This document shows, piece after piece, positions 1-46,422 of a DNA stretch of 64,000 nt (within the stretch, counting starts at the first letter, position 1; each line of letters starts with the position of its first letter). Origin of the DNA: G965261475 sp965261475 [NCBI: bacterium] (GTDB lineage: Bacteria > SAR324 > XYD2-FULL-50-16); assembly GCA_965261475.1 (NCBI GenBank), contig OZ253454.1, positions 372,001 to 436,000 of the forward strand, in the 5' to 3' direction. A model generated the notes under the pieces. It searched no databases. It saw only the letters and a program-made list of their open reading frames with translations, and was not told the DNA's origin. Made by a program: the position numbers and the translations under genes.

Positions 1-107
1 CTAAAATTAGTATATCTAATCTTAGCCTTTGGTGTATCTGTCGGCAAATCAAACATAACCATAATCCACATAGTTCTATAGCCTCCAAAAATTTTTGTTT
101 GCTTCAT
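1..107 (-). CDS. cas2: Cas2, CRISPR adaptation subunit (partial, runs off window start)
   Basis: Reading leftward from an ATG at 107-105, the frame stays open to the window edge and gives about 35 residues beginning MKQTKIFGGYRTMW and continuing VMFDLPTDTPKAK. A strand ending in (V/M)MFDLP followed by T and K is the hallmark first beta-strand of type II Cas2, with the conserved metal-site Asp. The start overlaps the cas1 stop by four bases (ATGA), so the two are translationally coupled. Cas2 forms the central dimer of the Cas1-Cas2 integrase that inserts new spacers. The rest of the gene, and probably the repeat-spacer array, lie beyond the left edge. Confidence 0.85.
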   Translation of the reverse strand, partial: MKQTKIFGGYRTMWIMVMFDLPTDTPKAKIRYTNF

Positions 108-994
108 TTTGCAAGAAATTTTGGTATCAAAAAATCTTTGCTTTGTTTTAAAAGTCTCTTCTTAAAAGATGCTACATAAATTTGCACGCCTGTAAATAGT
201 AGGTAGGAAGTTTCTGCTAATTGGCAGTAGTTAGTTAACAGCCCTAAAATCTTTTTTTTAATCTCTGGGGTGAGCTCGCTGGGAATTTCTTTGGAGCAAA
301 TTTGAAAAACTTGGCGATCGACCATAGGTCGTAAGGGCTCCATCAAATCGTCTGCTAGGCAAAAAACATTATACTGATTGCTGTGGTGGATGCCTATTGC
401 AGGGTGTAATCCTGTAGCAGCAATAGCACGAGCAACTAAACCTCGCATAATAGCGTAACCATAATTTAATAAAGAGTTGATTCCTATTTGTTGAAAATTT
501 CTACAAAATGTTTTTCCAAAGAGTTTTTTCCAGTAGATTTTTGCTGCTTGCCCCTCCAAATTAGAAGTATCACCGCTGAGAATTCTTTGAGATATTTGTT
601 GCAAACCAAAATTTTTGTGACAGCAGAGCTCTAGATTTTGAGCTTGCTCTTTGATTTTTGCTTGTATAATGGATTGCCATAGCCTTTTTTGTAATGCTTT
701 GCTTGCGCTAAATTGCTGATGAATGATTTTGTGGTGTAGTGTATTGCTAGAGGTTGGGTAGAGAATAGCGTGTGGCAGGTGCTGATTATTACACAGAATG
801 ACACAGGTATTGTTTGCTAAACACTGGTTTAGCAAGGACTGGCTATAGCTCAAAGCTGGGTTATCTAGCACTAAAACCCCGATGTCTTCTATAGGTATAG
901 AGCTCCTTGCTCCTTGCTCTTTTTTGAAGTAAAGTTGACGATTTCTAGTAAAAAGATAGCCCGCAGAGCTAATCTCTACAATTCTTTTAATCAT
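104..994 (-). CDS. cas1: Cas1, type II CRISPR integrase
   Basis: The 296-residue protein has the usual length of type II-C Cas1. It starts MIKRIVEISSAGYLF, contains the N-terminal beta-rich part with IPIEDIGVLVLDNP, and the helical catalytic part with NLEGQAAKIYWKKLFG (catalytic Glu of the E-G-x-A-A motif near residue 147). NSLLNYGYAIMRGLVARAI and GLHPAIGIHHSNQYNVFCLADDLMEP follow; the latter holds the metal-binding His and the downstream acidic residues. All active-site elements look intact. Cas1 joins prespacers to the leader end of the array. It lies 38 bp downstream of cas9 and overlaps cas2 by 4 bp, the standard cas9-cas1-cas2 order without csn2 or cas4, i.e. subtype II-C. Confidence 0.95.
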   Translation of the reverse strand: MIKRIVEISSAGYLFTRNRQLYFKKEQGARSSIPIEDIGVLVLDNPALSYSQSLLNQCLANNTCVILCNNQHLPHAILYPTSSNTLHHKIIHQQFSASKALQKRLWQSIIQAKIKEQAQNLELCCHKNFGLQQISQRILSGDTSNLEGQAAKIYWKKLFGKTFCRNFQQIGINSLLNYGYAIMRGLVARAIAATGLHPAIGIHHSNQYNVFCLADDLMEPLRPMVDRQVFQICSKEIPSELTPEIKKKILGLLTNYCQLAETSYLLFTGVQIYVASFKKRLLKQSKDFLIPKFLAK

Positions 995-1032
995 ATTTAA
1001 ACACTCCTAGTGCTTAAATAGCAATTTTTGTG

Positions 1033-3924
1033 CTAAACTTCAGAGTTTATAGCTTCTCCTAGAGAATTTAATTTTAGTTTTTGAGGCGAGTATTTAAGTA
1101 GACTAGTTTCTGTTAGCCGCAGTATACCTTTTGTACCCTCTCCTTGATCGCCTGTCTCTGCTCTGGTATGCTGCCTAAATGTAATTTTTGCAATTTTATC
1201 TTTTCCTTGAGAGAGTTTTTGCACTCTATAGTAATCATCTATGAGCTCACCCTTATCGGTTTTACCCTTCAAATAAAACATATCGTTAATCTTGAGGTGC
1301 AACAGGTACTTATATCCTGCTCTTTCTTTTTGAATAATGCTCTGTTTTTTTGCTTTTCTAGTAGCTGCTGTAAAAGTAGCTACCACTTGTGATTCTATTT
1401 TTTTGGTTTGAAGATTCTCAAAAATAATCAAATGGTGGTTGCTTCCTAGCTGGTAGTACTTATAAGGTACGCCTTGAGAGTTGCGAACTGGCATAACATT
1501 AGTCAATTGTTCTAAAACCCTGACCTTGCGAATAGCATTTTTATTTTGATGTATGAGACCTTGAGAGCATAATTCTTTCCGTTTTGTTTCAAACTTCTTA
1601 TTACCAGTAATTTTTGCTATTTGCTCTGTTATAAGCTCTCTGACATACTTATCGGTAATTTTTGCTAATTGAGCCTCGGTTAAATTTTCTAGGGCTACCC
1701 TATGAGTGTAGGAATACTCTTTATCTTTGATTTTTATAGGCTTTGGCATTTTACCGTAAGCAGTTTCTTTGTGTAGGGCACCTTTGAGATACTGATCTGG
1801 ACACTTGTAGTGGGATACTACAATTTTCGCTAGTTTTTCGTCTAATTGGTTTTTGCTAAAAGTATTTTTGATGTCCTCTGGGATTCTTAATCCCTTTTTT
1901 ATACCTATAATACTATTATTTTGATATTCCACAGAATCTTTGCTAATTTGCTGTACTAGTTTTATCTCTGTTAATCCTACCATAATAGCGTCTATGGCGT
2001 GGTGCCTGTGATCGTTTCTGTCTTTTTTAAAACCTAAAATTCCTCTTAAATTGGCTGTGAGGGTGCCATTGGCTACCTCAACTTTTGTACCTAAACATTT
2101 TAAATATTCTTTTTTTGTACCTAAACATTTTAAATATTCTTTTTTTGTACCTAAACATTTTAAATATTCTTTTGCTAGCTTTGAGATATAACGAGTGTCG
2201 TTTAAATGTCTAGTGGTAAATCTAGCAAGCAATTCTTTTACTTCTTGCTCTTTGAGAAAGAATTTCTTTTCTTTGTATGTTGGCATTGTTTTCATTGTAC
2301 GCAACCTTGTTTCTATTTGATTTAATTTATCTTTGGTGTAGCTCTCATCTGGTGTTTTATTTTTTTTGACTTCTCTGTTTTCTTTTGTGCAGCAGAGTGT
2401 TTTGTTTAAGTAAGAATTGTCTAGACTGCGAGAATAAGGAATAATATGCTCTACTTCAAATTGACCAGAAAATAAATTTTCAAAGCTAATAGTTTTTCCA
2501 GTATAAGGGCACATCTTTTCACACTCCTTCCAAAGTCGGTATTTTAAAATATCTGCACTCGTAGGCTGCTTGATTTGAGAATTTGCTACTAAATCTTCTT
2601 TTGCATCCTTTTTTTCTTTTGCTATTTTTCTATTTTTTTTGTCAATTTCCTCCCTTCTTTGTTTTCCGTTTTTGAGATCTCTAGCTAGCTCAACCCTGAT
2701 ATAATCAAATTTTTCATATTTGTCTAGTAGAGCGTTGATGACTTTTCTTAATTCTACGAGGGCTTTGACTACCACAGGGTTACGAATATCTTGGTTTTTA
2801 GCCTTTTTGGCTTTGTTTTTAGGGTTTTTTTCGTTGCATTGCGGGATATATGGCAACCTAGTTAAAATTTTTCTGGTCCTCTGGTCCTCTCTTTGGTAAC
2901 CCACTTCCTGGCAAGCATCGTGGTAATTTTTGCCCTGACTTAGAGGTACGAGTAATTTGTTAATGGCTTTGAGAGAAACACTAGCATAACCCTGACGAGC
3001 AAGCCCTAGCTTAATAAATTCAAAGGCGTCCTTTGGTGTAAACTCGTATTGTTTTTTTAATCTTTGATAGAGGGCTGTAGTTTTAACAATAGATACGCAA
3101 TCTTTGATAAAAGCACTTTGCTCGTCGTATGTTTTGAGCTTTTTCCAAAATACAGGGAATTTGCTTCTTATGTCGCAGGCGGTACTATTGCCTGATAGTG
3201 CTTTTTTGGTTTTTCTCTCTCCTTCAAGATTGATGGAGGTATTTCCTAGTTTTAAGAGGTTACGAAACGAGCTCCAAGATAAGGATTTAACCTCTTGTAA
3301 TTTTTGAAAAACTTTTTGTTTTTCTGCTAGATTCAAGTTTTTATACCCTGGAAGCTCAGGGTCATAATATTGGATATTATTGATATCTTGCCATATGCGG
3401 TATTGTTGAAACTCAAGCAAAGCCTTATTGCAACGTTTTTTGGTGGGCTCTAGGCTACATTTTCCTACCAAAAACTTTTGTATTTTTAGTGGGTTTTGAA
3501 AAAAAAGATTCTTACTAATTTCTTTTTTGAGGCTATCGTTGAGTAGTTTTGGGTGGTAGTATTTTTGTTTTTCCCACAGTGTTTCAAATTCTTGTTCGTA
3601 CATCTCTCTAGATGTATGTCTTCCTCTTTTTTTACTTCCCTTAGGCAAGCTATAAAGATATGCCCCTAGAGTTGATCCTTTGATTTGATGTTCTAAACTA
3701 GCAATATTTGCTAAAATTTTCTTTTCGTCTTTATCGTCTGTCTTTTTGTTTTTATCGTCTGTCTTTTCGTCTTTATCGTCTGTTTGTTGTCTTTTGACTT
3801 GTTTTGATAATGCTGCTTCTTCTGCTGCCAAAAGCTCTTTGATTTCTGGAGCACATTTATGATCTTTGAGTAAATCAGCAAATTCTGTTTTACGGTTACT
3901 ACGAAAACCTCTTCTTTTGCTCAA
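1033..3924 (-). pseudogene. cas9: cas9, major 3' part (RuvC-II, HNH, RuvC-III, PAM-interacting end) downstream of an in-frame stop
   Basis: The piece can be read from a TTG (LSKRRGF, the conserved Cas9 segment after the bridge helix) for 963 codons. It carries RuvC-II (RVELARDLKNG, about residue 410), an HNH core (FEVEHIIPYS, about 494, followed by the N and K residues) and RuvC-III (HRHHAIDAIM, about 640). It lies in the same frame as the N-terminal piece at 3976-4299: after a TAA at 3978-3976, seventeen sense codons (GLTKELDLNELARVFLH) bridge to the TTG. The intact gene would therefore encode about 1088 residues, the right size for II-C Cas9. Two internal tandem repeats are present: a three-copy 30-bp unit at 2083-2172 (EYLKCLGTKK) and a three-copy 21-bp unit near 3722-3784 (DDKDEKT). 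A separately translated product would lack RuvC-I and the arginine-rich bridge helix. Confidence 0.9.
2083..2172. repeat. three tandem 30-bp units inside cas9
   Basis: Three consecutive identical 30-bp units give EYLKCLGTKK repeated in frame between the HNH domain and RuvC-III. II-C relatives would be expected to have a single copy, so this looks like a local expansion. Confidence 0.85.
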
Positions 3925-3948
3925 GTGTAAAAATACTCTTGCTAACTC

Positions 3949-3980
3949 GTTAAGGTCTAACTCCTTTGTTAGACCTTAAC
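3949..3980. repeat. perfect 13-bp inverted repeat (6-nt loop) spanning the cas9 stop codon
   Basis: The arms gttaaggtctaac (3949-3961) and gttagaccttaac (3968-3980) are exact reverse complements separated by tccttt. The premature TAA of cas9 (minus strand, 3978-3976) lies inside one arm. A perfect 13-bp hairpin within otherwise conserved coding sequence is unlikely by chance. It is consistent with template-directed correction of an imperfect palindrome having produced the stop. Confidence 0.9.
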
Positions 3981-4299
3981 TTCTAAATTTGTAGGGATCA
4001 CTTTGGTAGAATTCATCTTTTGCTTTTTGTTTTTCTGGTAGCATTCCTTCTCTTTGGAGCAATTTGACTATTTTTTTAACTCGAGACGCTTTTCTTTGTA
4101 TAAGCCTTCTCGCTCCCCTAGCTTCCCTGCGTTGTTGGTTTTTCATTTTTTCTTGTTCGCCACCTGTCTTGCTGGTAACTCCTTGGAAAATCCTGACCCC
4201 GCAAGCTACTAATTTATGAGCTTTGTTGTTTTTGCCGTCTAGTACTGCCCAGCCTATGGAGTTTGTGCCTAGGTCTAGCCCTAAAATTTTTGTACCCAT
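3976..4299 (-). pseudogene. cas9: cas9, 5' part (RuvC-I and bridge helix) ending at premature TAA
   Basis: The reading starts at ATG 4299 with MGTKILGLDLGTNSIGWAV, the canonical Cas9 N-terminus with the RuvC-I catalytic Asp at residue 9. The frame is open upstream to 4377, but that stretch holds the cas9/tracrRNA promoters and has no Cas9 similarity. The arginine-rich bridge helix (NQQRREARGARRLIQRKASR) covers about residues 57-76. The piece ends DPYKFRS followed by TAA, exactly where relatives continue with a short link into a (L/A)KRRGF segment. One base change at the first position of the stop codon (AAA or GAA to TAA) restores one open frame with the downstream piece. No frameshift is needed. 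A sequencing error or stop-codon readthrough cannot be excluded. Confidence 0.9.
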
Positions 4300-4330
4300 A
4301 TTTTTTTTTAAGTAATTTTTGTTAAATAAT

Positions 4331-4358
4331 TTGACACTGGTCTTACTATCAGTATAAG
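4331..4358 (+). promoter_or_regulatory. sigma70-type promoter for tracrRNA
   Basis: A perfect -35 TTGACA (4331-4336), a 16-bp spacer and -10 TATAAG (4353-4358) predict a start near 4365, immediately before the anti-repeat-like sequence. Confidence 0.7.
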
Positions 4359-4377
4359 ATAAAAATGAGTTTGTCAA
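4351..4377 (-). promoter_or_regulatory. possible cas9 promoter, overlapping the tracrRNA promoter
   Basis: On the minus strand, TTGACA (4377-4372) and TATACT (4356-4351) are separated by 15 bp, slightly short of optimum. They would start transcription near 4344, about 45 nt upstream of the cas9 ATG. The -10 element occupies the same bases as the -10 of the opposite tracrRNA promoter. Confidence 0.45.
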
Positions 4378-18405: not shown

Positions 18406-18413
18406 AATTTTAA
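18406..18413. repeat. 8-bp target-site duplication, left copy (aattttaa)
   Basis: It is identical to 22129-22136 on the other side of the element. IS1595-family insertions are known to make 8-bp duplications. Confidence 0.9.
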
Positions 18414-18436
18414 GGGAATTATACGCTTAAAAAACC
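18414..18436. repeat. left terminal inverted repeat (23 bp)
   Basis: It is the exact reverse complement of 22106-22128, beginning gggaattatacgcttaa. Confidence 0.95.
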
Positions 18437-18454
18437 AAAACAAGCAAAAACCTC

Positions 18455-18483
18455 TTGACAAATAAGGGTTTTTATGCTATCGT
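18455..18483 (+). promoter_or_regulatory. transposon-internal promoter
   Basis: TTGACA (18455-18460), a 17-bp spacer and TATCGT (18478-18483) lie just inside the left end and would drive the transposase and the coupled R-M gene. Confidence 0.55.
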
Positions 18484-18515
18484 ATAAGTATAAATTAAAT
18501 AAGGGAGAAAATCAA

Positions 18516-19460
18516 ATGAAAACTAAAAAAAGAATAGCAAACACTTTGTCAGTATGGGAATTTATGAAACAATTCCCGACTGAAAATAGTGCTAGAAAAT
18601 ACCTAGAAAATAAACTTTGGAATGGCAAACCAACCTGCCCTTTTTGTAAGCAAGATGATAAAAAAAGAATTTGGAAATCTGCAACACAAAAAGGTTTATA
18701 CAAATGCAAAGATTGTCGCAAAAATTTTACAGTAACAAAAGGTACTGTATTTGAAAGTAGTAAAATTGATTTAAAGAGTTGGTTATACACACAATATTTA
18801 GTAGTGACTGCAAGAAAAGGTATTTCTTCCTTACAATTATCAAAAGAAATAGGGGTTAGACAAGCTACAGCGTGGTTTATGCTACAAAGATTGCGTGAGG
18901 CATGTAATTCTCAAAGTGGTATGCTTTCTGGAGTGATAGAAATGGACGAAACCTATATCGGTGGTAAAGAAAAGAATAAGCATTCTAATAAAAGAATAAC
19001 AGGAACACAAGGTAGGAGTACAAAAACAAAAGCAGTAGTGGTAGGAATGCGAGAGCGAGGTGGTAAATTTAGAGCTGGTAAGATGGAGATTGTAAACAAA
19101 AAAACAATTCAAGAAAAGATTGACAAAAACATAGAAAAAGGTAGCATTATATGTACAGACGAAGCCAGACACTACAAACAAATAAGAGGCTATCATCATA
19201 AACTAGTCAATCATAGCGTAGGCGAATTTGTAAAAGGAATGGCAAGTACAAATGGAATAGAAAGTATGTGGGCGTTGCTAAAGCGAGGTTATCACGGCAC
19301 TTTTCATCACTTTAGCAAAAAACACATAGACCGCTATGTTGATGAATTTAGTTTTAGATTAAATTTTTGTAGTTGTGAGCTAGATACTATGGATAGAATA
19401 CAAAATTTATGTCAAGCTACACAAGGTAAGAGATTAACTTATAAAAGATTGATAAAATGA
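18516..19460 (+). CDS. IS1595-family transposase (DDE_ISXO2 type)
   Basis: The protein is about 314 residues from ATG 18516, which has a ribosome site GGGAG at 18503-18507; the frame is open from 18474 but that part overlaps the promoter. It has an N-terminal zinc ribbon (CPFC ... CKDC, about residues 36-65) that binds the transposon ends. The catalytic DDE_ISXO2 domain carries EMDETYIGGKEKNKH, ICTDEARHYKQ and STNGIESMWALLKRGYHGTFHHFSKKHIDRYVDEF. Its stop overlaps the start of the R-M gene (ATGA). It should mobilise the whole 3.7-kb unit. Confidence 0.93.
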   Translation: MKTKKRIANTLSVWEFMKQFPTENSARKYLENKLWNGKPTCPFCKQDDKKRIWKSATQKGLYKCKDCRKNFTVTKGTVFESSKIDLKSWLYTQYLVVTARKGISSLQLSKEIGVRQATAWFMLQRLREACNSQSGMLSGVIEMDETYIGGKEKNKHSNKRITGTQGRSTKTKAVVVGMRERGGKFRAGKMEIVNKKTIQEKIDKNIEKGSIICTDEARHYKQIRGYHHKLVNHSVGEFVKGMASTNGIESMWALLKRGYHGTFHHFSKKHIDRYVDEFSFRLNFCSCELDTMDRIQNLCQATQGKRLTYKRLIK

Positions 19461-21139
19461 ATGAGACTTTATCAACCATTAATATAAATAGCCAATTAGT
19501 AAATTTAGGTTGGTGTATCACTGGCAATAAGAGGAATGTTTTTGTAGAGGGGGAATGTAAGACGAAAGAACAAAAAAATCAACTTCAAAAAAAAAGACCT
19601 GATTATATCCTATATGAAAGTAATTCTATTAATCCGCTAGGTATTATAGAAGCAAAGAAACCAAATGGAGATTTAGACAAAGCATTAAAGCAAGGTTTTG
19701 ATTATGCTAAAAAAATAGGAGCTAAAATTATATTTGCATCAGATGGTTTTATAGTTAAAGCAATGAATATTTACAAAAAAACATTAACTATTGATGAAGA
19801 AAGAATAGAAGGATTTGTAAGTGAAAATATTTTAAAGAAATTAGTTTTAACTCCAAATTTGGAAACAGACAGTAATATTATAAAAAACAGAAATGAACTT
19901 ATTAAATTATTTGATAAAGCTAATAATAGTTTAAGAGCTGATGGTGTAGATGTAGGCATTGATAGTATTTATGAATTTTGTAGTATTCTTTTTATAAAAT
20001 TAAAATCTGAAACTGATAAAAAAATAGAAGAATATTATAGCTGGAATAATTTGGTGCAGAATAGTGGCCAGAACCTTTACAAAAAATATACAGAAATTAT
20101 TGGTTATTTTAAAAAAAAGTATAAAGGGATTTTTAGAGAAATAAAAATACAAAATCCAGCTACGCTTGAGAAAATTGTAATTAGTTTAAAAGCTCTAAAT
20201 ATTTCTAATACAAATATTGATATAAAAGGAGGCTCTTATGAATATTTTCTTAAAAGATATTCGTCCAAAAATAAAAGCGTTTTGGGTCAATATTTTACTC
20301 CTAGACATATTACACAAATGTTAACTATTTTATTAAATCCTAAAATAGATGAAAAAATATATGATCCTTTTTGTGGAACTGGTGGGATGCTAACAGAATG
20401 CTATAAGTTTATTAGAAAAAATATTACTCAAAATAACCAAATAAAAAAACTTAATTTAAAAACACTGTTTGGGAATGATATTACACTTGGAGCATCTCAA
20501 TTAGCTAAAATGAATATGGTTTTGTTAGGCGACGGACACTCTAATATCCAAAAATTAGATAGTTTAAATAATCCCGTAAATAATAAATATGATTGTGTAA
20601 TTACCAATATACCATTTAATTTACCGCAAACAGACAAAGGTCGTTTATATAATTCAGGTGATACTAACTCTAATAATATTTGTTTGAGACATTGTATTCA
20701 ATCTATAAAAAAGGGAGGGAGAGCTTGTATTATTATTCCAGAAAATATTTGTTATGATAACCATTATCAAAGTATAAGGAAATTTTTATCAGAGAATGGG
20801 AATATAAAAGCAGTTATAAGATTACCACGAGAAACATTCAAAACTTACACTACAGCTAGAACTTGTATTTTATATATTACAGACATAAAACAAAGTAAAA
20901 CAAAGAATTATTCTTATATAGAAATAAAAAATGACGGATACTCCAAAACTGCTTGGAGAGAACCTACATTAAAAAATGATATTCCAAAGATTTTAGAATA
21001 CAGAGAAGAATTAGGTAAAAAATCTATTAGAAAATTAAATTCTAATTATCATTTTATTGTGGAAAGAAAATGCTCTGTTAAAACTACTAAAAAGAGACAG
21101 GGGGGGGGGGGTATTATTTACGAGATGTTCTTGAATTAA
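19457..21139 (+). CDS. Restriction-modification protein, nuclease + N6-adenine methylase part, currently truncated at a poly-G tract
   Basis: The 560-residue product has three parts. Residues about 1-130 form a type I HsdR-N-like nuclease domain (KRPDYILYES ... GIIEAKKP, i.e. D...E-x-K). Residues about 150-260 form a helical HsdM-N-like part. About 265-520 is an N6-adenine methylase with SVLGQYFTPRHI, DPFCGTGGMLTE (AdoMet motif I) and TNIPFNLP (an NPPF variant, I for the first P). At G12 (21100-21111) the frame passes into GGGGIIYEMFLN and stops. With a G count one more or two fewer, translation would continue into the specificity segment at 21112-21612. The architecture is a single-chain R-M-S (type IIG-like) enzyme. 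It is coupled to the transposase by ATGA. Confidence 0.85.
   Translation: MNETLSTININSQLVNLGWCITGNKRNVFVEGECKTKEQKNQLQKKRPDYILYESNSINPLGIIEAKKPNGDLDKALKQGFDYAKKIGAKIIFASDGFIVKAMNIYKKTLTIDEERIEGFVSENILKKLVLTPNLETDSNIIKNRNELIKLFDKANNSLRADGVDVGIDSIYEFCSILFIKLKSETDKKIEEYYSWNNLVQNSGQNLYKKYTEIIGYFKKKYKGIFREIKIQNPATLEKIVISLKALNISNTNIDIKGGSYEYFLKRYSSKNKSVLGQYFTPRHITQMLTILLNPKIDEKIYDPFCGTGGMLTECYKFIRKNITQNNQIKKLNLKTLFGNDITLGASQLAKMNMVLLGDGHSNIQKLDSLNNPVNNKYDCVITNIPFNLPQTDKGRLYNSGDTNSNNICLRHCIQSIKKGGRACIIIPENICYDNHYQSIRKFLSENGNIKAVIRLPRETFKTYTTARTCILYITDIKQSKTKNYSYIEIKNDGYSKTAWREPTLKNDIPKILEYREELGKKSIRKLNSNYHFIVERKCSVKTTKKRQGGGGIIYEMFLN
21100..21111 (+). repeat. G12 mononucleotide tract, likely phase-variation switch
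   Basis: Twelve consecutive G residues sit at the junction of the methylase and specificity parts. The downstream frame is joined when the count is 10 or 13, and not with the 12 seen here. Such long G runs are otherwise absent from this AT-rich window. Confidence 0.85.
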
Positions 21140-21612
21140 AAGAAAATAAACAAAAATTAAAAGAAAATAAAATTTATTACGAACCTAGATTATCCTCTGC
21201 TACAAATACTATTACAAAAAGAGGAAGTGGAAGATTAGGTAAGAATATAAAGAAAGATAAAATAATTATAAAACCAGGAGATTTAGTTATTGGGACTTTA
21301 CATACTCAAAGCGGAAATGGACTTTTTGGGATTAGCGATGATTATTATATTGCTACATCTCAAATAGTAGGTAGAATAAACGAAAATGTTATAAATAAGG
21401 AATATTTGATACTCCAATTAAAAAAAATACTTCCAGAATTAAAGTCAAACGATTTGGTAGGTAGAGAAACATATAGACCAGAAAAAATATTATCATTAAC
21501 AATACCTAGACAGCCCGACAATTTTATAAAAGATTTACAAGAAATTAAAAAATTAAAAGATAAAAAAGAAGAAACAGAAAAACAAATTAGGAAATTAGAA
21601 AATAAATATTAA
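21112..21612 (+). pseudogene. Specificity (HsdS-like target-recognition) part of the R-M gene, out of frame in this state
   Basis: From the end of the G tract the frame reads YYLRDVLELKENKQ, then through YEPRLSSATNTITKRGSGR, IIIKPGDLVIGTLHTQSGNGLFGISDDYYIATSQI and EYLILQLKK to a C-terminal coiled coil (LQEIKKLKDKKEETEKQIRKLENKY). IKPGDLVIGT...Y(I/V)AT followed by a terminal helix is the layout of one HsdS half (target-recognition domain plus conserved helix). It has no start codon of its own that would give the whole domain. It is best read as the switched-off 3' end of the upstream gene rather than a dead gene. Confidence 0.8.
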
Positions 21613-21675
21613 CTAAATAATAATAAAACAGAAATAAGAATGTATAGAACACAACCAGAATTAGGACAATAAATT

Positions 21676-21873
21676 ATGAAAAAGAATAAAACAACAATCC
21701 CAGTTAAAAAGAAAAAAAGATATTATAATTATACAGGAGGAATGTCTGCTGATTGTATGGACGGAGATGAAATGGCAAAAGCAAAGCATTATTGTTTAGA
21801 TTGTGAAAAATATTTTAGTAGATGTAGAAGTTTCACTTGCCCTTGTTGTGGAGCAGAAATGCAGGAGCTATAA
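21676..21873 (+). CDS. Small zinc-ribbon protein (transposon passenger)
   Basis: The 65-residue protein has a lysine-rich N-terminus, a GGMSADCMDGDEM segment and a C-terminal zinc-ribbon-like HYCLDCEKYFSRC...FTCPCCGAEM with two CxxC pairs. I do not recognise the family. It lies inside the transposon, 63 bp after the R-M reading frame, and may be co-transcribed. A DNA-binding accessory or controller role is possible but not shown. Confidence 0.6.
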   Translation: MKKNKTTIPVKKKKRYYNYTGGMSADCMDGDEMAKAKHYCLDCEKYFSRCRSFTCPCCGAEMQEL

Positions 21874-21924
21874 AATAGAAAAAAATTGATTTTCGCTTAA
21901 TAAAAGAAATAGTAAAAATAATCA

Positions 21925-22089
21925 ATGAAAAAACAAAAAAAGACTAGCTGGGGTGAGGGAAGTATGCACCTTACAGAAAAACAAAGGGAAAGGGCAGAAA
22001 AAGCAATAGGAAAAGAAAATATGAAAGCAATAGATGAGGCTTTAACAGAAGGTTTTCAAAAGATGGGACTTATTAAAGATAAAAAATAA
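21925..22089 (+). CDS. Small hypothetical helical protein (transposon passenger)
   Basis: The 54-residue frame runs from ATG 21925: MKKQKKTSWGEGSMHLTEKQ, then charged helix-forming sequence (RERAEKAIGKENMKAIDEALTEGFQKMG). It ends 16 bp before the right inverted repeat. It has good helix periodicity and lies in line with the other passengers, but no known family is recognised and no strong ribosome site is seen. Confidence 0.5.
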   Translation: MKKQKKTSWGEGSMHLTEKQRERAEKAIGKENMKAIDEALTEGFQKMGLIKDKK

Positions 22090-22105
22090 AATTTTTTTCA
22101 TAAAT

Positions 22106-22128
22106 GGTTTTTTAAGCGTATAATTCCC
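22106..22128. repeat. right terminal inverted repeat (23 bp)
   Basis: It is the exact reverse complement of 18414-18436. Confidence 0.95.
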
Positions 22129-22136
22129 AATTTTAA
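22129..22136. repeat. 8-bp target-site duplication, right copy (aattttaa)
   Basis: It is identical to 18406-18413 and lies only 4 bp before the dnaG ATG. Confidence 0.9.
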
Positions 22137-36182: not shown

Positions 36183-38075
36183 ATGAATTTTTTACTAGAT
36201 GACCCGATTATTAACATATTCTTTGCTATTATTGCTGGAGTGTTTATTTTGTGTATCTGTGTTTTTCACTATTTTCCTCAAAATAGATTGTATTCTATAG
36301 CTAATCAAGGCTCTTCCTTGCTGGTTACTCTAGGTATTTTGGGTACTTTCGTAGGAATCAGTATAGCTCTTACTAACTTTGATACTTCAAATATCAACCA
36401 AGCTATCCCTCTACTATTATCTGGGCTAAAAACTGCATTTTATACTAGTGTTGCTGGTTTATTAGCGTCTCTTATATTTAGGGTAATAAAATCTTGCTTA
36501 AGCAAGGATAAGTCAGCTGGCGATTCGCATGCAGTACTAGTGCAGATTAGTGATAATATTGTTGATGTTAGAGACGCTCTGATAGGAGAAGGCGATGCTA
36601 GTCTCTCTACACAAATGAGCAAAGTTAGAGACGCTCTGATAGGAGAAGGCGATGCTAGTCTCTCTACACAAATAGGAAAATTAAGGCTAGATTTTCAAAG
36701 TTTTGCAGAAAAAATAACCAAAGATAGCTCAAAGGCACTGATTGAAGCACTAGAGAATGTAATTAAAGATTTTAATGCCAAAATTAATGAGCAATTTGGA
36801 GAGAATTTTAAACGTTTAAATGAAGCGGTTGGTAAGCTTTTAGCTTGGCAAATAGAATACAAACAGCAAGTTCAAGAACTCACGGCAATTTTTGAGGAAG
36901 CAAAAACAGGCATTGTGGTAGCACAAGAAAGCATCACAAAAATTGAAAAATCAAGTTCTAAAATTCCCGAGCAAATGGCAAAAATAGCAGAAGTTTTTGA
37001 GCTCACAGATACACGCATGAAAGAGCTATATAATGGTTTGTCTAGTCTAGCTGAGCTACGCCTGCAAGCAGAAGCAGCAGTGCCTTTTCTCCAAAAGCAG
37101 TTTGAAACTATGACAGGTAATTTTAAAACTATAGCAGATGATTTTCAAGCTAGTGTAGCAGAGCAATTAACAGCTATCCAAACTACACAATCAGAATTCC
37201 AAGATAACAATAAGGCAGAGCTTGAAAAAATAACAGAAGGTTTTGCTACTACAAACAAAGATATACAAGGTATGCTCTCAAAATCTACTACAGATACCAG
37301 TGAGATGCTCAATAAATCTGTAGCGTCTCTAGATCAGATTATCAAAGATAAATTAACAGTTATCCAAACTACACAATCAGAATTCCAAGATAACAATAAG
37401 GCAGAGCTTGAAAAAATAACAGAAGGCTTTGCTACTACAAACAAAGATATACAAGGTATGCTCAATAAATCTGTAGCGTCTCTAGATCAGATTATCAAAG
37501 ATAAATTAACAGCTATCCAAACTACACAATCAGAATTCCAAGATAACAATAAGGCAGAGCTTGAAAAAATAACAGAAGGTTTTGCTACTACAAACAAAGA
37601 TATACAAGGTATGCTCTCAAAATCTACTACAGATACCAGTGAGATGCTCAATAAATCTGTAGCGTCTCTAGATCAGATTATCAAAGAGCAATTAACAGCT
37701 ATCCAAGCTACACAATCAGAATTCCAAGATAACAATAAGGCAGAGCTTAAAAAAATAACAGAAGGTTTTGCTACTACAAACAAAGATATACAAGGTATGC
37801 TCTCAAAATCTACTACAGATACCAGTGAGATGCTCACTGGCTCAATATTGGAGTTATCGGAAAAAATAGAAGGTCAGATTTCAAAATCTACTCAAACAAC
37901 CAGTGAGATGCTCAATCAATCCATCCAGCAGCTAGATAGTAGTATGGAAAAAGAATTAGAAAGGGCGTTAAACAGACTAGGGAATAGTTTGATTGCGATT
38001 ACAACAAAATTAGTAAAGAGCTATGAAGAGCATTCTGAGCATATTAGCAGCCAATTAGACAAGCGTCAATCTTAG
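36183..38075 (+). CDS. zorA: ZorA-like MotA/TolQ/ExbB proton-channel subunit with long repetitive tail
   Basis: The 630-residue protein has membrane segments at about 8-28, 38-60 (SLLVTLGILGTFVGISIAL) and 82-105 (LLLSGLKTAFYTSVAGLLASLIF). The GILGTFVGI...GLKTAFYTSVAGL block is the MotA/TolQ/ExbB signature as seen in ZorA. The remaining about 500 residues are a predicted cytoplasmic coiled-coil tail. It contains a 57-bp duplication (36567-36680, VRDALIGEGDASLSTQ twice) and three-and-a-half near-identical units of up to 62 residues (37167-37840, LTAIQTTQSEFQDNNKAELE...). Known ZorA proteins form a pentameric motor around ZorB with a long intracellular tail. It is followed 2 bp later by zorB. 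Confidence 0.85.
   Translation: MNFLLDDPIINIFFAIIAGVFILCICVFHYFPQNRLYSIANQGSSLLVTLGILGTFVGISIALTNFDTSNINQAIPLLLSGLKTAFYTSVAGLLASLIFRVIKSCLSKDKSAGDSHAVLVQISDNIVDVRDALIGEGDASLSTQMSKVRDALIGEGDASLSTQIGKLRLDFQSFAEKITKDSSKALIEALENVIKDFNAKINEQFGENFKRLNEAVGKLLAWQIEYKQQVQELTAIFEEAKTGIVVAQESITKIEKSSSKIPEQMAKIAEVFELTDTRMKELYNGLSSLAELRLQAEAAVPFLQKQFETMTGNFKTIADDFQASVAEQLTAIQTTQSEFQDNNKAELEKITEGFATTNKDIQGMLSKSTTDTSEMLNKSVASLDQIIKDKLTVIQTTQSEFQDNNKAELEKITEGFATTNKDIQGMLNKSVASLDQIIKDKLTAIQTTQSEFQDNNKAELEKITEGFATTNKDIQGMLSKSTTDTSEMLNKSVASLDQIIKEQLTAIQATQSEFQDNNKAELKKITEGFATTNKDIQGMLSKSTTDTSEMLTGSILELSEKIEGQISKSTQTTSEMLNQSIQQLDSSMEKELERALNRLGNSLIAITTKLVKSYEEHSEHISSQLDKRQS
36567..36680 (+). repeat. 57-bp tandem duplication in zorA
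   Basis: Two copies begin gttagagacgctctg at 36567 and 36624; they differ only at the end of the second copy. Confidence 0.9.
37167..37840 (+). repeat. tandem 186/153/186-bp repeats encoding the zorA tail
   Basis: Units start at 37167, 37353, 37506 and 37692. The second lacks 33 bp (11 codons), and all spacings are multiples of three. The units are almost identical in DNA, so they arose recently. Confidence 0.9.
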
Positions 38076-38077
38076 CA

Positions 38078-38767
38078 ATGGCAACTAACAAAATCTTAAC
38101 TCCACAAACTAGCGAGGAGGATTCTTGGATGTCTATTTCGGATATGATGGCAGGGCTAATGTTAGTTTTTTTGTTTATTGCTATTGTTTATATTCGCAAC
38201 ATTGGTCAACATGCCAATGAAATCAATGATACACAAGAGAAAATTTGTAATGAGCTCAAACAAGAATTTAGAGAAGTTGAAACAGCATGGAGAATGTCTA
38301 TTTGTGAGAATGGACTAGTAATAAAATTTAGGAATGAAGCTATTTTTACACAGGGCAATGATAGAATCGCACCAGAATTTCAAGTTATACTTCGTGATTT
38401 TTATCCAAGATTTATGAAAATAATTTGGCTAAATCAAGCAAAAATTAGCGAGCTTCGTATTGAGGGGAATACCTCAAGCGAGGGGGCAAGAGGTATGGAT
38501 CAGTTTGATGCTTATCTCTACAATACTCAATTATCGCAAAATAGATCAATCAATGTGATGTATTTTGTTTTAAATATAGCAAAAATAAAAACAAACTCAG
38601 ATTATCTTATCTGGTCGTATCAGAATTTAACTGCTCATGGTTTGTCCTCGTCTAATTTGGTAATTAGTCAAAATCTTGAAGATAGAGTGAACTCTAGAAG
38701 AGTTGAGTTTAGGCTAAAAACAACAGCACAAGACGAGCTCTTGCAACTCATTAAAACTATTCAGTGA
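38078..38767 (+). CDS. zorB: ZorB-like MotB/OmpA-domain stator subunit
   Basis: The 229-residue protein has a short cytoplasmic N-terminus and one membrane helix, SWMSISDMMAGLMLVFLFIAIVYI. The Asp in SDMMAGLM occupies the proton-relay position of MotB and ZorB. The periplasmic domain is OmpA/MotB-like (LRIEGNTSSEGARG ... NTQLSQNRSINVMYFVL ... NSRRVEFRLK). It should anchor the motor to peptidoglycan. It overlaps the HNH gene by four bases (GTGA). Confidence 0.85.
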   Translation: MATNKILTPQTSEEDSWMSISDMMAGLMLVFLFIAIVYIRNIGQHANEINDTQEKICNELKQEFREVETAWRMSICENGLVIKFRNEAIFTQGNDRIAPEFQVILRDFYPRFMKIIWLNQAKISELRIEGNTSSEGARGMDQFDAYLYNTQLSQNRSINVMYFVLNIAKIKTNSDYLIWSYQNLTAHGLSSSNLVISQNLEDRVNSRRVEFRLKTTAQDELLQLIKTIQ

Positions 38768-39597
38768 AGCTGTTTATAAATTCGTTTATCGAGCTCGACA
38801 AACTTCGTCAAAGGCTTGGAGCACCTAAAACGAGCTATGAGTTTAGCACTCCATTAGATAAGACAGCAAAAATAAAAATTGAGCTTAAAAACAGCGGTAT
38901 TGAAGTTAGCGCAGACGAATTGGAAAAAGTTGGTCCTTTTTTGTCTTATAAAGATAATCTAGTAATGCATTATATTAAAGACAGTAGATACTCACGCGAA
39001 GATTTATTAAATACTACAGTAAACAAGCGCGCTCCAAAATTTCACTTTTACAACCAGTGTCGTACTCTAGTAGAGATGGAACAAAAAGGCAAAAAAAATC
39101 GGTATGTAGCCTTTACATCTACAACTAATAAATTTAAGGTCAAAGATAGTGATAATAAGGAAATACCAGATGTTATACTCTATGTTTGTCAAAATTGTTT
39201 AAATGGCTCTGGTTATAGAGGATTTTCTTACAAGTTTTTAAAAGATAAACGCATTCAAGCAGTTAAAGATTTTGATATTCCAACTTTTTTAGCAGAAAAT
39301 CACAGCACCTATGGTGATCTGCTGAATATTAAACCTAGTGAGAGAGATGAGTATCCTGCTGATTGGATGGAAGTTTCTAGGAAAACTAGGCAAAATGCAA
39401 AATGGAAATGCTCAAAGTGCTATGTAGATATGTCAAAAAGAATGGATGGGTTGCATACACACCACATAGATAAAGATAAAACAAATAATAGAGATGATAA
39501 TTTACAAGTGCTATGTGCTCTATGCCATCAAAAACACCATCCAACAATGAATGTAACAAAAAGAATTCAAAGACATATTCTACAGCAACGCCAATAG
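38764..39597 (+). CDS. zorE: HNH endonuclease, ZorE-like effector of Zorya type II
   Basis: The 277-residue protein starts at a GTG overlapping zorB. The C-terminal 60 residues are a complete HNH domain with structural zinc: CSKCYVDMSKRMDG, then LHTHHIDKDKTNNRDDNLQVLCALCHQKHHP (His-His, Asn, His, plus the second CxxC). The N-terminal two thirds is not recognised but has another CxxC (VCQNC, about residue 137). In Zorya type II the third gene after zorA and zorB is an HNH nuclease (ZorE), so synteny supports the name. It would nick or cut invading DNA when the membrane motor signals infection. Confidence 0.75.
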   Translation: MKLFINSFIELDKLRQRLGAPKTSYEFSTPLDKTAKIKIELKNSGIEVSADELEKVGPFLSYKDNLVMHYIKDSRYSREDLLNTTVNKRAPKFHFYNQCRTLVEMEQKGKKNRYVAFTSTTNKFKVKDSDNKEIPDVILYVCQNCLNGSGYRGFSYKFLKDKRIQAVKDFDIPTFLAENHSTYGDLLNIKPSERDEYPADWMEVSRKTRQNAKWKCSKCYVDMSKRMDGLHTHHIDKDKTNNRDDNLQVLCALCHQKHHPTMNVTKRIQRHILQQRQ

Positions 39598-44197: not shown

Positions 44198-46294
44198 ATG
44201 CTAAAACTAAGCGAGCAAGAAAAAGCAGAGATACTCCGCTATTTAAATGAGAATAAGGAATTACCAGAGAAATATCGTTTTTTGTTGTTTGGTGATAAAC
44301 AAGAGATAGAGTTAGTGTGGCGTGAGAAGAGCAATGAAGTATGCAATGTGGTACTTCCTTTTCAAATCATTGAAAATATAGACGAGCCTAGAGCAGAAAA
44401 AGTAGAAGCACCACAGCTAGATTTTGGTTGCGATACGCGCGGTCGCCAGCTTCAAGGTTGGACTAACAAACTAATCTGGGGTGATAACAAGTTGATTCTC
44501 TCCTCCCTTAAAAATGGCGCTTTGCGTGAGGAAATCGAGGAACAAGGTGGTATCAAACTTATCTATATTGACCCACCTTTTGATGTAGGGGCAGATTTTA
44601 GTATGGATATTGAGATTGGAGATGATACTTTCACCAAAAAGCCAAATATTCTAGAGGAGATTGCCTACCGTGATACCTGGGGCAAGGGTGCGGATTCGTT
44701 TATTGCTATGATCTATGAACGGCTGGTGTTGATGCGCGACCTACTGGCTGAGAATGGCAGCATTTATGTGCATTGCGACTGGCGGGTGAATAGTTATCTG
44801 CGGTTGGTACTGGATGAGGTTTTTGGGAGAGATAATTTTAGGAATGAGATTATATGGGGCTATGCTACTGGAGGAATAGGAAAAACAACTTTTGCAAAGA
44901 AGCATGACACTATATTATTTTTTTCAAATAATGATAGTTATCAATTTTATCAAAAGAAAATACCATCAAAAGACCCTAAAAGATTTAATTTGATTGATGA
45001 AGATAGTAGGAAATATTATATTAAGGCTGGAAATAAATATTATTTAGATGAAGGGGTTGCTATGTCTGATGTATGGGTTGATATTTATCCAGTTAGAAAT
45101 GTATCAAAAGAAAAAGCTGGCTATCCCACCCAAAAACCCGAAGCTCTACTGGAGCGCATTATCAAAGCCTCCTCCAACGAGGGCGATCTAGTAGCTGATT
45201 TTTTCTGTGGCTCTGGCACTACCGCTGCTGTAGCTGAAAAGCTCGGGCGTCAGTGGATTGCTAGTGATCTGGGTAAATTTGCTATCCACACCACCCGCAA
45301 GCGTATGATTGGCGTCCAACGAGAGCTTAAAAAAGCAGACTCCAACTACCGTGCTTTTGAGATTTTGAACCTTGGTAAATACGAGCGCCAGCGCTACTTG
45401 GAAGTTAATCCAAATTTGAGAGAGCAAGAGCAGCAAAAACAATTGCAAACCAAAGAGCAAGATTTTGTGAAGCTAATTTTATGTGCTTACCGCGCTGAGG
45501 CTATAACAAACCATTCTCACTTTCAAGGCAAGAAAAATCAGCGGTTTATCGCAGTGGGACCTATTAACTTGCAAGTAACAAGAGCTTTGGTAGCAGAGAT
45601 TATTGCAGTATGCTGCACGGAGCGAATTACTAAAGTAGATATACTAGGTTTTGAGTTTGAGATGGGTTTGTTTCCTAATTTAATAGACGAGGCGCGCAGC
45701 AAAGGCATTGACCTTGCTCCAAAATATATTCCAGTAGAGGTTTTTGATCAAAAAGCTGTAGCTAACAACCAAGTAGTATTTTATGATGTAGCCTATATTG
45801 AAGCTGAAGCTATTATCAATCAAGAAAAAGAACAAAAACCTACAATCAAGGTACAGCTCACAGATTTTTCAGTATTTTATTCACAAGATGCTAAAGCTTA
45901 CACAGAGCAAACCCTCAAAAAAAATAGTGCTAAAATCGTAGTTGACGAGGGTCAGGTAGTCAAGCTCAGCAAAGACTATGATGGCAAAATTACCCGCGAC
46001 ATCCTCACCAAAAAATGGACTGATTGGATTGACTACTGGTCGGTGGATTTTGATTTTGAGAGCAAGCGCGAGATGATTCGCGTACAAAACTCAAATAGCG
46101 GTGAGTGGGAAGAACAGTGGAGCGGTGAGTATGTCTTTGAGAACGAATGGCAGAGCTTTCGCAGCAAAAAAAACCGAACTCTAGAGTTAACCAGCATTGC
46201 CCACGAATGCCAACTAGGAGAGCGCAAGATTGCCGTTAAGGTGATAGATATTTTTGGCAACGATACAATGCGTATTGTAAAAGTAAAAGTTTAG
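44198..46294 (+). CDS. mod: Type III restriction-modification DNA methyltransferase (Mod)
   Basis: The 698-residue protein has an N-terminal part, then motif IV IYIDPPFDVGADFS (about residue 125) preceding motif I LVADFFCGSGTTAAVAEKLGR (about 333). This is the beta-class order of type III Mod N6-adenine methylases. Between them, about residues 212-305, lies the target-recognition region. Its DNA (44835-45110) is far AT-richer than the flanks: about 23% G+C in 44941-45000 against 52% in 45121-45180. It has a ribosome site aagga. Mod alone methylates, and with Res it forms the restriction enzyme. Confidence 0.9.
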   Translation: MLKLSEQEKAEILRYLNENKELPEKYRFLLFGDKQEIELVWREKSNEVCNVVLPFQIIENIDEPRAEKVEAPQLDFGCDTRGRQLQGWTNKLIWGDNKLILSSLKNGALREEIEEQGGIKLIYIDPPFDVGADFSMDIEIGDDTFTKKPNILEEIAYRDTWGKGADSFIAMIYERLVLMRDLLAENGSIYVHCDWRVNSYLRLVLDEVFGRDNFRNEIIWGYATGGIGKTTFAKKHDTILFFSNNDSYQFYQKKIPSKDPKRFNLIDEDSRKYYIKAGNKYYLDEGVAMSDVWVDIYPVRNVSKEKAGYPTQKPEALLERIIKASSNEGDLVADFFCGSGTTAAVAEKLGRQWIASDLGKFAIHTTRKRMIGVQRELKKADSNYRAFEILNLGKYERQRYLEVNPNLREQEQQKQLQTKEQDFVKLILCAYRAEAITNHSHFQGKKNQRFIAVGPINLQVTRALVAEIIAVCCTERITKVDILGFEFEMGLFPNLIDEARSKGIDLAPKYIPVEVFDQKAVANNQVVFYDVAYIEAEAIINQEKEQKPTIKVQLTDFSVFYSQDAKAYTEQTLKKNSAKIVVDEGQVVKLSKDYDGKITRDILTKKWTDWIDYWSVDFDFESKREMIRVQNSNSGEWEEQWSGEYVFENEWQSFRSKKNRTLELTSIAHECQLGERKIAVKVIDIFGNDTMRIVKVKV
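44835..45110 (+). other. AT-rich target-recognition segment inside mod (possible domain swap)
   Basis: The base composition changes abruptly near both ends of this segment, and the reading frame is kept. It falls exactly between catalytic motifs IV and I, where the specificity domain of beta-class Mod proteins sits. Confidence 0.6.
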
Positions 46295-46422
46295 AGCTAT
46301 GGAAATACAAAAAAGCTTCAACTGCTTCAACCGATCAATAGGTCTGCAATATAAGCTATGAATTATCAGCGAAGGAATTTATATTTTTATCATAAACCAG
46401 AAACTACTATAGTATATATCAA

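What the first reader, a model, noticed from the sequence alone, without database searches (positions are those of the whole stretch)
18406..22136. Intact IS1595-type transposon carrying a restriction-modification system as passenger
Perfect 23-bp terminal inverted repeats, an 8-bp target duplication (aattttaa) and an ISXO2 transposase enclose a full R-M gene plus two small genes. This is a self-mobile defence cargo unit in which the R-M gene is translationally coupled (ATGA) to the transposase. IS1595 elements with passenger genes are known; this specific combination seems unusual.
Basis: partly seen in the sequence, partly recalled or inferred. Interest (0 to 1): 0.85.

Follow-up and report, generated by a model that had tools for sequence, protein, structure and literature searches.

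The report
Jumping gene carrying a switchable restriction system
A small jumping gene carries its own DNA-cutting and DNA-marking enzyme, apparently with an on/off switch built into it, and related jumping genes carry different enzymes of this sort in the same slot.

Summary
In detail: a 3,715-bp IS1595-family transposon with perfect 24-bp ends and an 8-bp target duplication lies between rpsT and dnaG. The reading needs two corrections.

First, the R-M gene is not one open frame. A run of 12 G sits where the methyltransferase part meets the C-terminal specificity-like part; one frame closes 25 bp after it, the other opens 9 bp before it. This is the anatomy of a phase-variable type IIG-like enzyme, split as assembled.

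Second, the combination recurs. Among 76 related elements with ends and duplication, at least 22 carry a DNA methyltransferase, in at least 10 phyla. The window's three nearest transposases lie before three different methyltransferase systems. Two further elements have octamer arrays ahead of a methyltransferase. In some elements, not the window's, cargo proteins of unrelated families begin with a short peptide that smaller relatives encode as a separate ORF.

IS1595 transposons with passengers and poly-G-switched type IIG genes are each known; my searches found no report of this R-M slot or the leader, but key subscription papers were unread. Mobility, activity and switching are untested.

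The parts
18406..18413 (.). 8-bp target duplication, left copy (AATTTTAA)
18414..18437 (+). left terminal inverted repeat, 24 bp
   Evidence: 24/24 complementary to the right end; outer bases fit the commonest bases GGGAATTATA of 76 relatives
18455..18483 (+). promoter-like site TTGACA-17-TATCGT with TG before the second hexamer
   Evidence: consensus scan; 29 sites found in the region against a mean of 22.1 in shuffles, so weak by itself
18516..19460 (+). IS1595-family transposase, 314 aa
   Evidence: Pfam and NCBIfam; in one SH-aLRT 99 clade with L084, L085, L086
19457..21139 (+). R-M protein, N-terminal part: HsdR_N-like nuclease motif PD..EAK, N6_Mtase domain with DPFCGTGG and NIPF; 560 aa, ends shortly after the G run
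21100..21111 (+). run of 12 G at the methyltransferase / specificity boundary, where the reading frame changes
21112..21612 (+). C-terminal specificity-like part in another frame (166 aa; frame open from 21091)
   Evidence: weak homology to the C-termini of two single-chain relatives; no Pfam match
21676..21873 (+). 65-aa ORF with CxxC pairs, function unknown
   Evidence: no family above cut-off, no plasmid match
21925..22089 (+). 54-aa ORF, function unknown
   Evidence: no family match
22105..22128 (-). right terminal inverted repeat, 24 bp
22129..22136 (.). 8-bp target duplication, right copy (AATTTTAA)

Best explanation
This is an IS1595-family transposon that inserted between rpsT and dnaG and carries a type IIG-like restriction-modification enzyme (nuclease, adenine methyltransferase and specificity region) as cargo. 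The cargo starts at the transposase stop codon by an ATGA overlap, so its translation probably depends on translation of the transposase. A 12-G run at the hinge between catalytic and specificity parts acts as a slippage switch: one of three length classes gives a full enzyme, the other two a protein without its specificity part. The assembled copy is in a split state. The element belongs to a broad group of IS1595 transposons whose slot behind the transposase is repeatedly refilled with different R-M or methyltransferase systems, P63C/KilA-type proteins or other cargo. Shown from sequence: ends, duplication, domains, overlap, G run, frames, relatives. Inferred: mobility, translational coupling, enzyme activity, that the run varies in length, and that the split state is off.
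For: Ends and duplication. Transposase family. R-M part 38% identical over residues 10-509 to a 755-aa single-chain Acinetobacter N-6 DNA methylase. The post-run frame begins YLRDVLEL, aligning with IYLRDVIQE in the Geobacillus relative. The two frames hand over inside 21091-21136, which holds the run, the only G/C run of 7 or more in 64 kb. Nearest transposases (SH-aLRT 99) lie before other systems: L084 C5 methyltransferase; L085 N6_N4 methyltransferase plus MTaX1/HNH; L086 N6_Mtase plus Methylase_S. Of 76 elements, 57 have an ORF of 36 aa or more starting -16 to +11 from the transposase stop against 140 of 352 long ORFs in the flanks, and 39 of 76 against 52 of 352 for ORFs of 200 aa or more. 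Octamer arrays in L114 (15 copies, before a C5 methyltransferase in another frame than its leader) and in L122 (before an N6_N4 methyltransferase-HNH protein).
Against: Homology of the C-terminal part is weak (E 0.004 and 0.010 in single comparisons), with no Pfam match, and its model failed (pLDDT 46). The nuclease domain is below Pfam's cut-off in the window (22.5 against 25), though above it in two relatives. The best PADLOC matches are Type I methyltransferase and mad2 models; the type IIG model comes lower at 5e-22. The run length comes from one assembly and could be wrong. No close relative of the host was found, so neither an empty site nor a second tract length was seen. Start-stop overlap is common: 45 of 352 flank ORFs have it at -4, so the overlap alone is weak evidence of coupling. 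L085 failed the end filter and its first cargo ORF starts 46 bp after the stop; L086 has 16/16 ends but a duplication of only 6/8. No second close copy of the transposase was found in the genomes of L084, L085 and L086.
Confidence: 0.72

Rival explanations
1. The R-M cargo is a pseudogene: the G run is a chance frameshift and the C-terminal frame is a remnant.
For: As assembled the protein is truncated, and the C-terminal part has only weak homology.
Against: Both frames are open up to the run and hand over within 46 bp; catalytic motifs are present. A 12-G run in 34% GC DNA is not expected by chance, and two relatives have octamer arrays ahead of a methyltransferase.
Confidence: 0.12
2. The run length is a sequencing or assembly error and the gene is really one open frame.
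For: Long homopolymers are error-prone (recalled); the assembly's source and platform are unknown.
Against: None from these calls; but a run near that length would still be a candidate mutable tract.
Confidence: 0.2
3. Slippage of RNA polymerase or ribosome on the run makes some full enzyme from the split gene, so the run is a constant-ratio device rather than a switch.
For: Homopolymers of this length can allow slippage (recalled, no call).
Against: Octamer arrays in two related elements fit DNA-level switching better, but this is indirect.
Confidence: 0.15
4. The R-M gene is ordinary host or prophage cargo that an IS1595 element picked up once, with no wider pattern.
For: Its best homologues found are on an Acinetobacter plasmid and in Acinetobacter phage records, and it lacks the shared leader.
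Against: All three nearest transposases are also followed by methyltransferase genes, and at least 22 of 76 elements carry one.
Confidence: 0.1

Closest known systems
IS1595-family transposons with passenger genes (tIS; MTnSag1 and tISCpe8)
   Same: IS1595 DDE transposase, terminal inverted repeats (25 bp in these), target duplication, passenger genes (passages of PMC5704250 seen)
   Different: Those are described as mobilizable elements, and tISCpe8 as a lincomycin resistance element in a title of that paper's reference list. Here the cargo is R-M, overlaps the transposase stop and holds a long G run.
Phase-variable type IIG enzyme Cj0031 of Campylobacter jejuni
   Same: type IIG R-M gene with a polymorphic poly-G tract of 8-10 bases in the coding sequence (passages of PMC4335053 and PMC6321876 seen)
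   Different: No transposon is mentioned in the passages seen; here the gene lies inside a transposon behind its transposase.
Single-chain N-6 DNA methylases WP_000065151 (Acinetobacter) and WP_172418938 (Geobacillus)
   Same: HsdR_N plus N6_Mtase plus a C-terminal region in one chain; 38% identity over about 500 residues for the Acinetobacter protein
   Different: One open frame of 752-755 aa; no transposase among the genes listed within 4 kb (that gene table is incomplete).
BcgI-like two-gene systems (name recalled), compare cargo L086
   Same: N6_Mtase protein with a Methylase_S partner
   Different: In L086 the specificity protein is a separate 315-aa gene, and no simple repeat was found in that element.

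Membership tests
IS1595 family transposon | IS1595 DDE domain with N-terminal zinc ribbon | tested here: met
   PF12762, PF12760 and NF033547 above cut-offs; D144, D215, N246, E249, K256 invariant in four aligned relatives (their catalytic reading is recalled)
IS1595 family transposon | terminal inverted repeats and 8-bp target duplication | tested here: met
   24/24 ends, 8/8 duplication
IS1595 family transposon | transposition by this transposase on these ends | not testable with these tools
   needs an assay
Type IIG-like R-M enzyme | nuclease motif and N6 methyltransferase motifs in one chain | tested here: met
   PD..EAK at 48, DPFCGTGG at 303, NIPF at 384; N6_Mtase E 7.7e-48; HSDR_N below cut-off
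Type IIG-like R-M enzyme | specificity region in the same open frame | tested here: not met
   separated by the 12-G run in the assembled copy; so it is called type IIG-like, not filed as a complete type IIG enzyme
Phase-variable gene | simple-sequence tract in the coding region with frames handing over at it | tested here: met
Phase-variable gene | tract length differs between cells or strains | not testable with these tools
   one assembly only; no close relative found
IS1595 elements with orf2 leader fused to cargo | cargo N-terminus matches the orf2 or leader profile | tested here: not met
   the window R-M N-part was in the searched set and is not among the matches to either profile

The most novel reading that the evidence does not exclude
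A group of IS1595 transposons spread across phyla has a standard cargo slot: a short transposon-encoded leader, started at the transposase stop, onto which unrelated DNA methyltransferases and P63C/KilA-type proteins are fused in frame. The leader is functional, for example holding the cargo enzyme to the transposase or the transposon ends so that the new copy or its target is marked during transposition. In part of the group slippery tracts let an R-M system enter a naive genome in an off state. The window element is a leaderless, poly-G-switched member.
Probability: 0.2. Interest if true: 0.85.

Novelty: new variant of a known kind. Interest (0 to 1): 0.62.

Why it matters
How R-M systems move and establish themselves without killing a new host is an open question. 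A transposon that carries R-M behind its own transposase, in three cases with a candidate mutable tract, makes this testable: entry in an off state and later switching on would avoid the establishment problem. The repeated swapping of methyltransferase types on related transposases gives natural replicates. The leader shared by unrelated cargo proteins is a concrete and unexplained feature that a pull-down or deletion could test. Because cargo often starts at the transposase stop codon, such defence genes may be missed or misnamed in annotation.

Tried and rejected
Exact search of 18 bases of the window's end in viral contigs: none. Viral-contig search with the window R-M protein: none. Host identification and the empty-site test: no own genome; dnaG searches of 14 and then 398 genomes gave only distant matches, and rpsT was not found by tblastn in the 12 short loci that held a dnaG match. 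Structure of the C-terminal part: pLDDT 46, not searched further. Small ORFs: no match in other loci, in plasmids (65-aa ORF only) or above cut-off in family libraries.

Other tracts: C8 in L059 and G13 in L162 were looked at and dropped; at G13 no long frame continues. C8 in L110 was listed but not examined. In L122 a run of N lies between the two octamer arrays, so the frame relation to the methyltransferase cannot be told.

Rows left out: L053 was left out of the Pfam tally as a near copy of L039 (40 of 41). Identical elements were counted once; near copies such as L039 and L053 both count among the 76. The 76 were selected for ends of at least 12/16, a duplication of at least 7/8 and outer bases GG or GA...CC, so they cannot prove that such features are universal; 163 loci were scanned, and the rest failed, were duplicates or ran off contigs. 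A tree of 80 of 141 transposase rows was built, keeping the labelled rows and 25 others.

Control that weakens a point: start-stop overlap is common. 140 of 352 long flank ORFs meet the coupling criterion that 57 of 76 transposases meet; position -8 (7 of 352 against 20 of 76) and cargo of 200 aa or more (52 of 352 against 39 of 76) differ most. My confidence in the best explanation was lowered from 0.75 to 0.72 for this.

Papers: ten searches. Seen as passages only: PMC9296519, PMC6563490, PMC7371123, PMC5704250, PMC12707154, PMC6321876, PMC4335053. The two works most likely to hold prior reports, Siguier et al. 2009 on IS1595 (seen as a reference) and a survey of mobile R-M forms (recalled title), were not read.
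Full report
What is there. The 24-bp ends at 18414-18437 and 22105-22128 are perfectly complementary, with AATTTTAA on both sides. The 23-bp end occurs only at these two places in the window. Inside lie a 314-aa IS1595 transposase, an R-M reading frame that starts at the ATGA of the transposase stop, and two small ORFs. Without the element and one duplication copy, rpsT and dnaG would be 116 bp apart. A promoter-like site lies just inside the left end, but such sites are common in this AT-rich DNA.

The R-M gene. The 560-aa frame holds a nuclease motif PD..EAK and methyltransferase motifs DPFCGTGG and NIPF. N6_Mtase scores E 7.7e-48; the HsdR_N domain is below Pfam's cut-off but above it in two homologues. 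Among PADLOC models, Type I methyltransferase and mad2 score above type IIG. It is 38% identical over residues 10-509 to a 755-aa Acinetobacter protein. The frame ends 25 bp after 12 G at 21100-21111. A second frame, open from 21091 to 21612, continues after the run with YLRDVLEL, matching IYLRDVIQE of the Geobacillus protein. Its homology is weak (E 0.004 and 0.010), it has no Pfam match, and its single-sequence model is useless. The run is the only G or C run of 7 or more in 64 kb. I read this as a slippage switch between catalytic and specificity parts; the assembled copy is split. Sequencing error and polymerase slippage are not excluded.

Relatives. A first scan gave L001-L005. A profile from the window and L001 transposases then gave 78 loci in viral contigs and 80 in genomes (both lists capped at 80, so only the best are held). 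Of these 163 loci, 76 distinct elements passed ends of at least 12/16 and a duplication of at least 7/8: 73 with 8/8 and 3 with 7/8. Their duplications are 84% AT against 47.5% in the flanks. 57 of 76 have an ORF of at least 36 aa starting -16 to +11 from the transposase stop, 23 at -4 and 20 at -8. By the same rule 140 of 352 flank ORFs of 250 aa or more do, 45 at -4 and 7 at -8; for a following ORF of 200 aa or more it is 39 of 76 against 52 of 352. So overlap at the stop is enriched but not special to these elements.

Cargo. Of 40 coupled first cargo proteins scanned, 12 matched P63C, 9 N6_N4_Mtase, 7 C5 methylase, 2 D12, 1 N6_Mtase, 1 Eco57I, 2 RhuM, 1 KilA-N and 1 Bro-N (one protein can match several). 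The tally does not name members; with motifs I assign 19 of 40 to DNA methyltransferases. Adding L114, L122 and the second ORF of L055 gives at least 22 of 76 elements. Of 29 second ORFs, 5 matched MvaI_BcnI, 2 PDDEXK_11 and 1 BglII; others matched toxin-antitoxin and other families. By record titles the methyltransferase carriers among the 76 lie in 10 phyla, 11 with L086; most are metagenome bins, so single placements may be wrong. L001 lies on a contig with terminase genes, so such an element can ride in phage DNA.

Place of the window element. Its transposase falls in a four-member clade (SH-aLRT 99) with L084, L085 and L086. L084 is followed by a C5 methyltransferase and an ORF of unknown family; L085 by an N6_N4 methyltransferase and an MTaX1/HNH protein; L086 by an N6_Mtase protein and a Methylase_S protein. 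L086's N6_Mtase protein is 27% identical to the window's over residues 254-497. L085 failed the end filter, and L086's duplication is 6/8. Each of the three genomes holds one close copy of the transposase, and one also a 30% relative. The tree needs at least 12 changes of cargo class over 42 labelled rows; P63C-like and N4/N6 classes are clustered on it, the C5 class is not. Cargo is therefore swapped, though not freely.

Switch-like tracts elsewhere. L114 has 15 copies of an octamer between its leader ORF and a C5 methyltransferase that is open in another frame. L122 has octamer arrays either side of a run of N, directly after the transposase stop and ahead of an N6_N4 methyltransferase-HNH protein; its frame relation cannot be told. 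With the window that is three elements with three different tracts.

The leader. Small relatives (L012, L016, L017, L018, L022) have an ATGA-coupled 42-46-aa ORF. A profile from ten such ORFs (39-74 aa; L088 cut to 46) was run on 114 cargo proteins, the window's included, and matched the N-terminus of five: L001 34.4, L099 23.7, L093 20.0, L021 19.4 and L097 11.0 bits. L001 and L021 are C5, L097 N6_N4 and L099 P63C; L093 I class as C5. A second profile, from the N-termini of 16 cargo proteins that I had classed as non-methyltransferase, was run on the other 98: it matched L053 (a near copy of a seed, 41.6) and the N-termini of methyltransferases L112 26.4, L118 23.9, L154 14.3, L133 11.4 and L108 7.4 bits; L115 at 5.0 equals the best of 20 shuffles. 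In 1,827 ORFs outside the elements the best scores were 5.8 and 5.1 bits. Plasmid homologues, six listed rows each, mostly begin after the leader: query residue 28 in five rows and 24 in one for L084; 45-53 for L001; 47 in two rows, 25-31 in three and 10 in one for L112; 26-29 in four and 10 in two for L154. The window R-M protein shows neither leader.

Novelty. IS1595 transposons with passengers and type IIG genes with poly-G tracts are each known. Ten searches of an open-licence library listed no paper that by title or start of abstract reports R-M cargo on IS1595 elements, the coupled slot or the leader; seven papers were looked into by passages, and the key subscription papers were not available. 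I rate it a new variant of a known kind.

Unknown. The host lineage, the empty site, mobility, enzyme activity, target sequence, actual tract variation, and the role of the leader and of the two small ORFs.

Noticed in passing
window 36183-39597: Three adjacent genes match ZorA2, ZorB2 and ZorE2, a Zorya type II set.
   Followed up: partly
window 104-4377: cas1 and a Cas9 gene split into two ORFs (1033-3924 and 3976-4377, minus strand) that both match Cas9. By eye, the break holds a short inverted repeat and no simple repeat (sequence).
   Followed up: partly
window 44198-49089: Type III R-M pair: methyltransferase and restriction subunit.
   Followed up: no
window 55314-58064: ORF of 916 aa ending in many copies of a TPDNKQAMTN-like repeat.
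   Followed up: no
L001 4499-6431: Terminase small and large subunits beside an IS1595 element with C5 methyltransferase cargo: an R-M transposon in phage DNA.
   Followed up: partly
L098, L158: Leader-like ORFs standing alone (55 and 61 aa) behind the transposase, of two types other than the main one.
   Followed up: partly
L162 9618-9630: Run of 13 G inside another IS1595 element, with no long frame continuing across it.
   Followed up: partly
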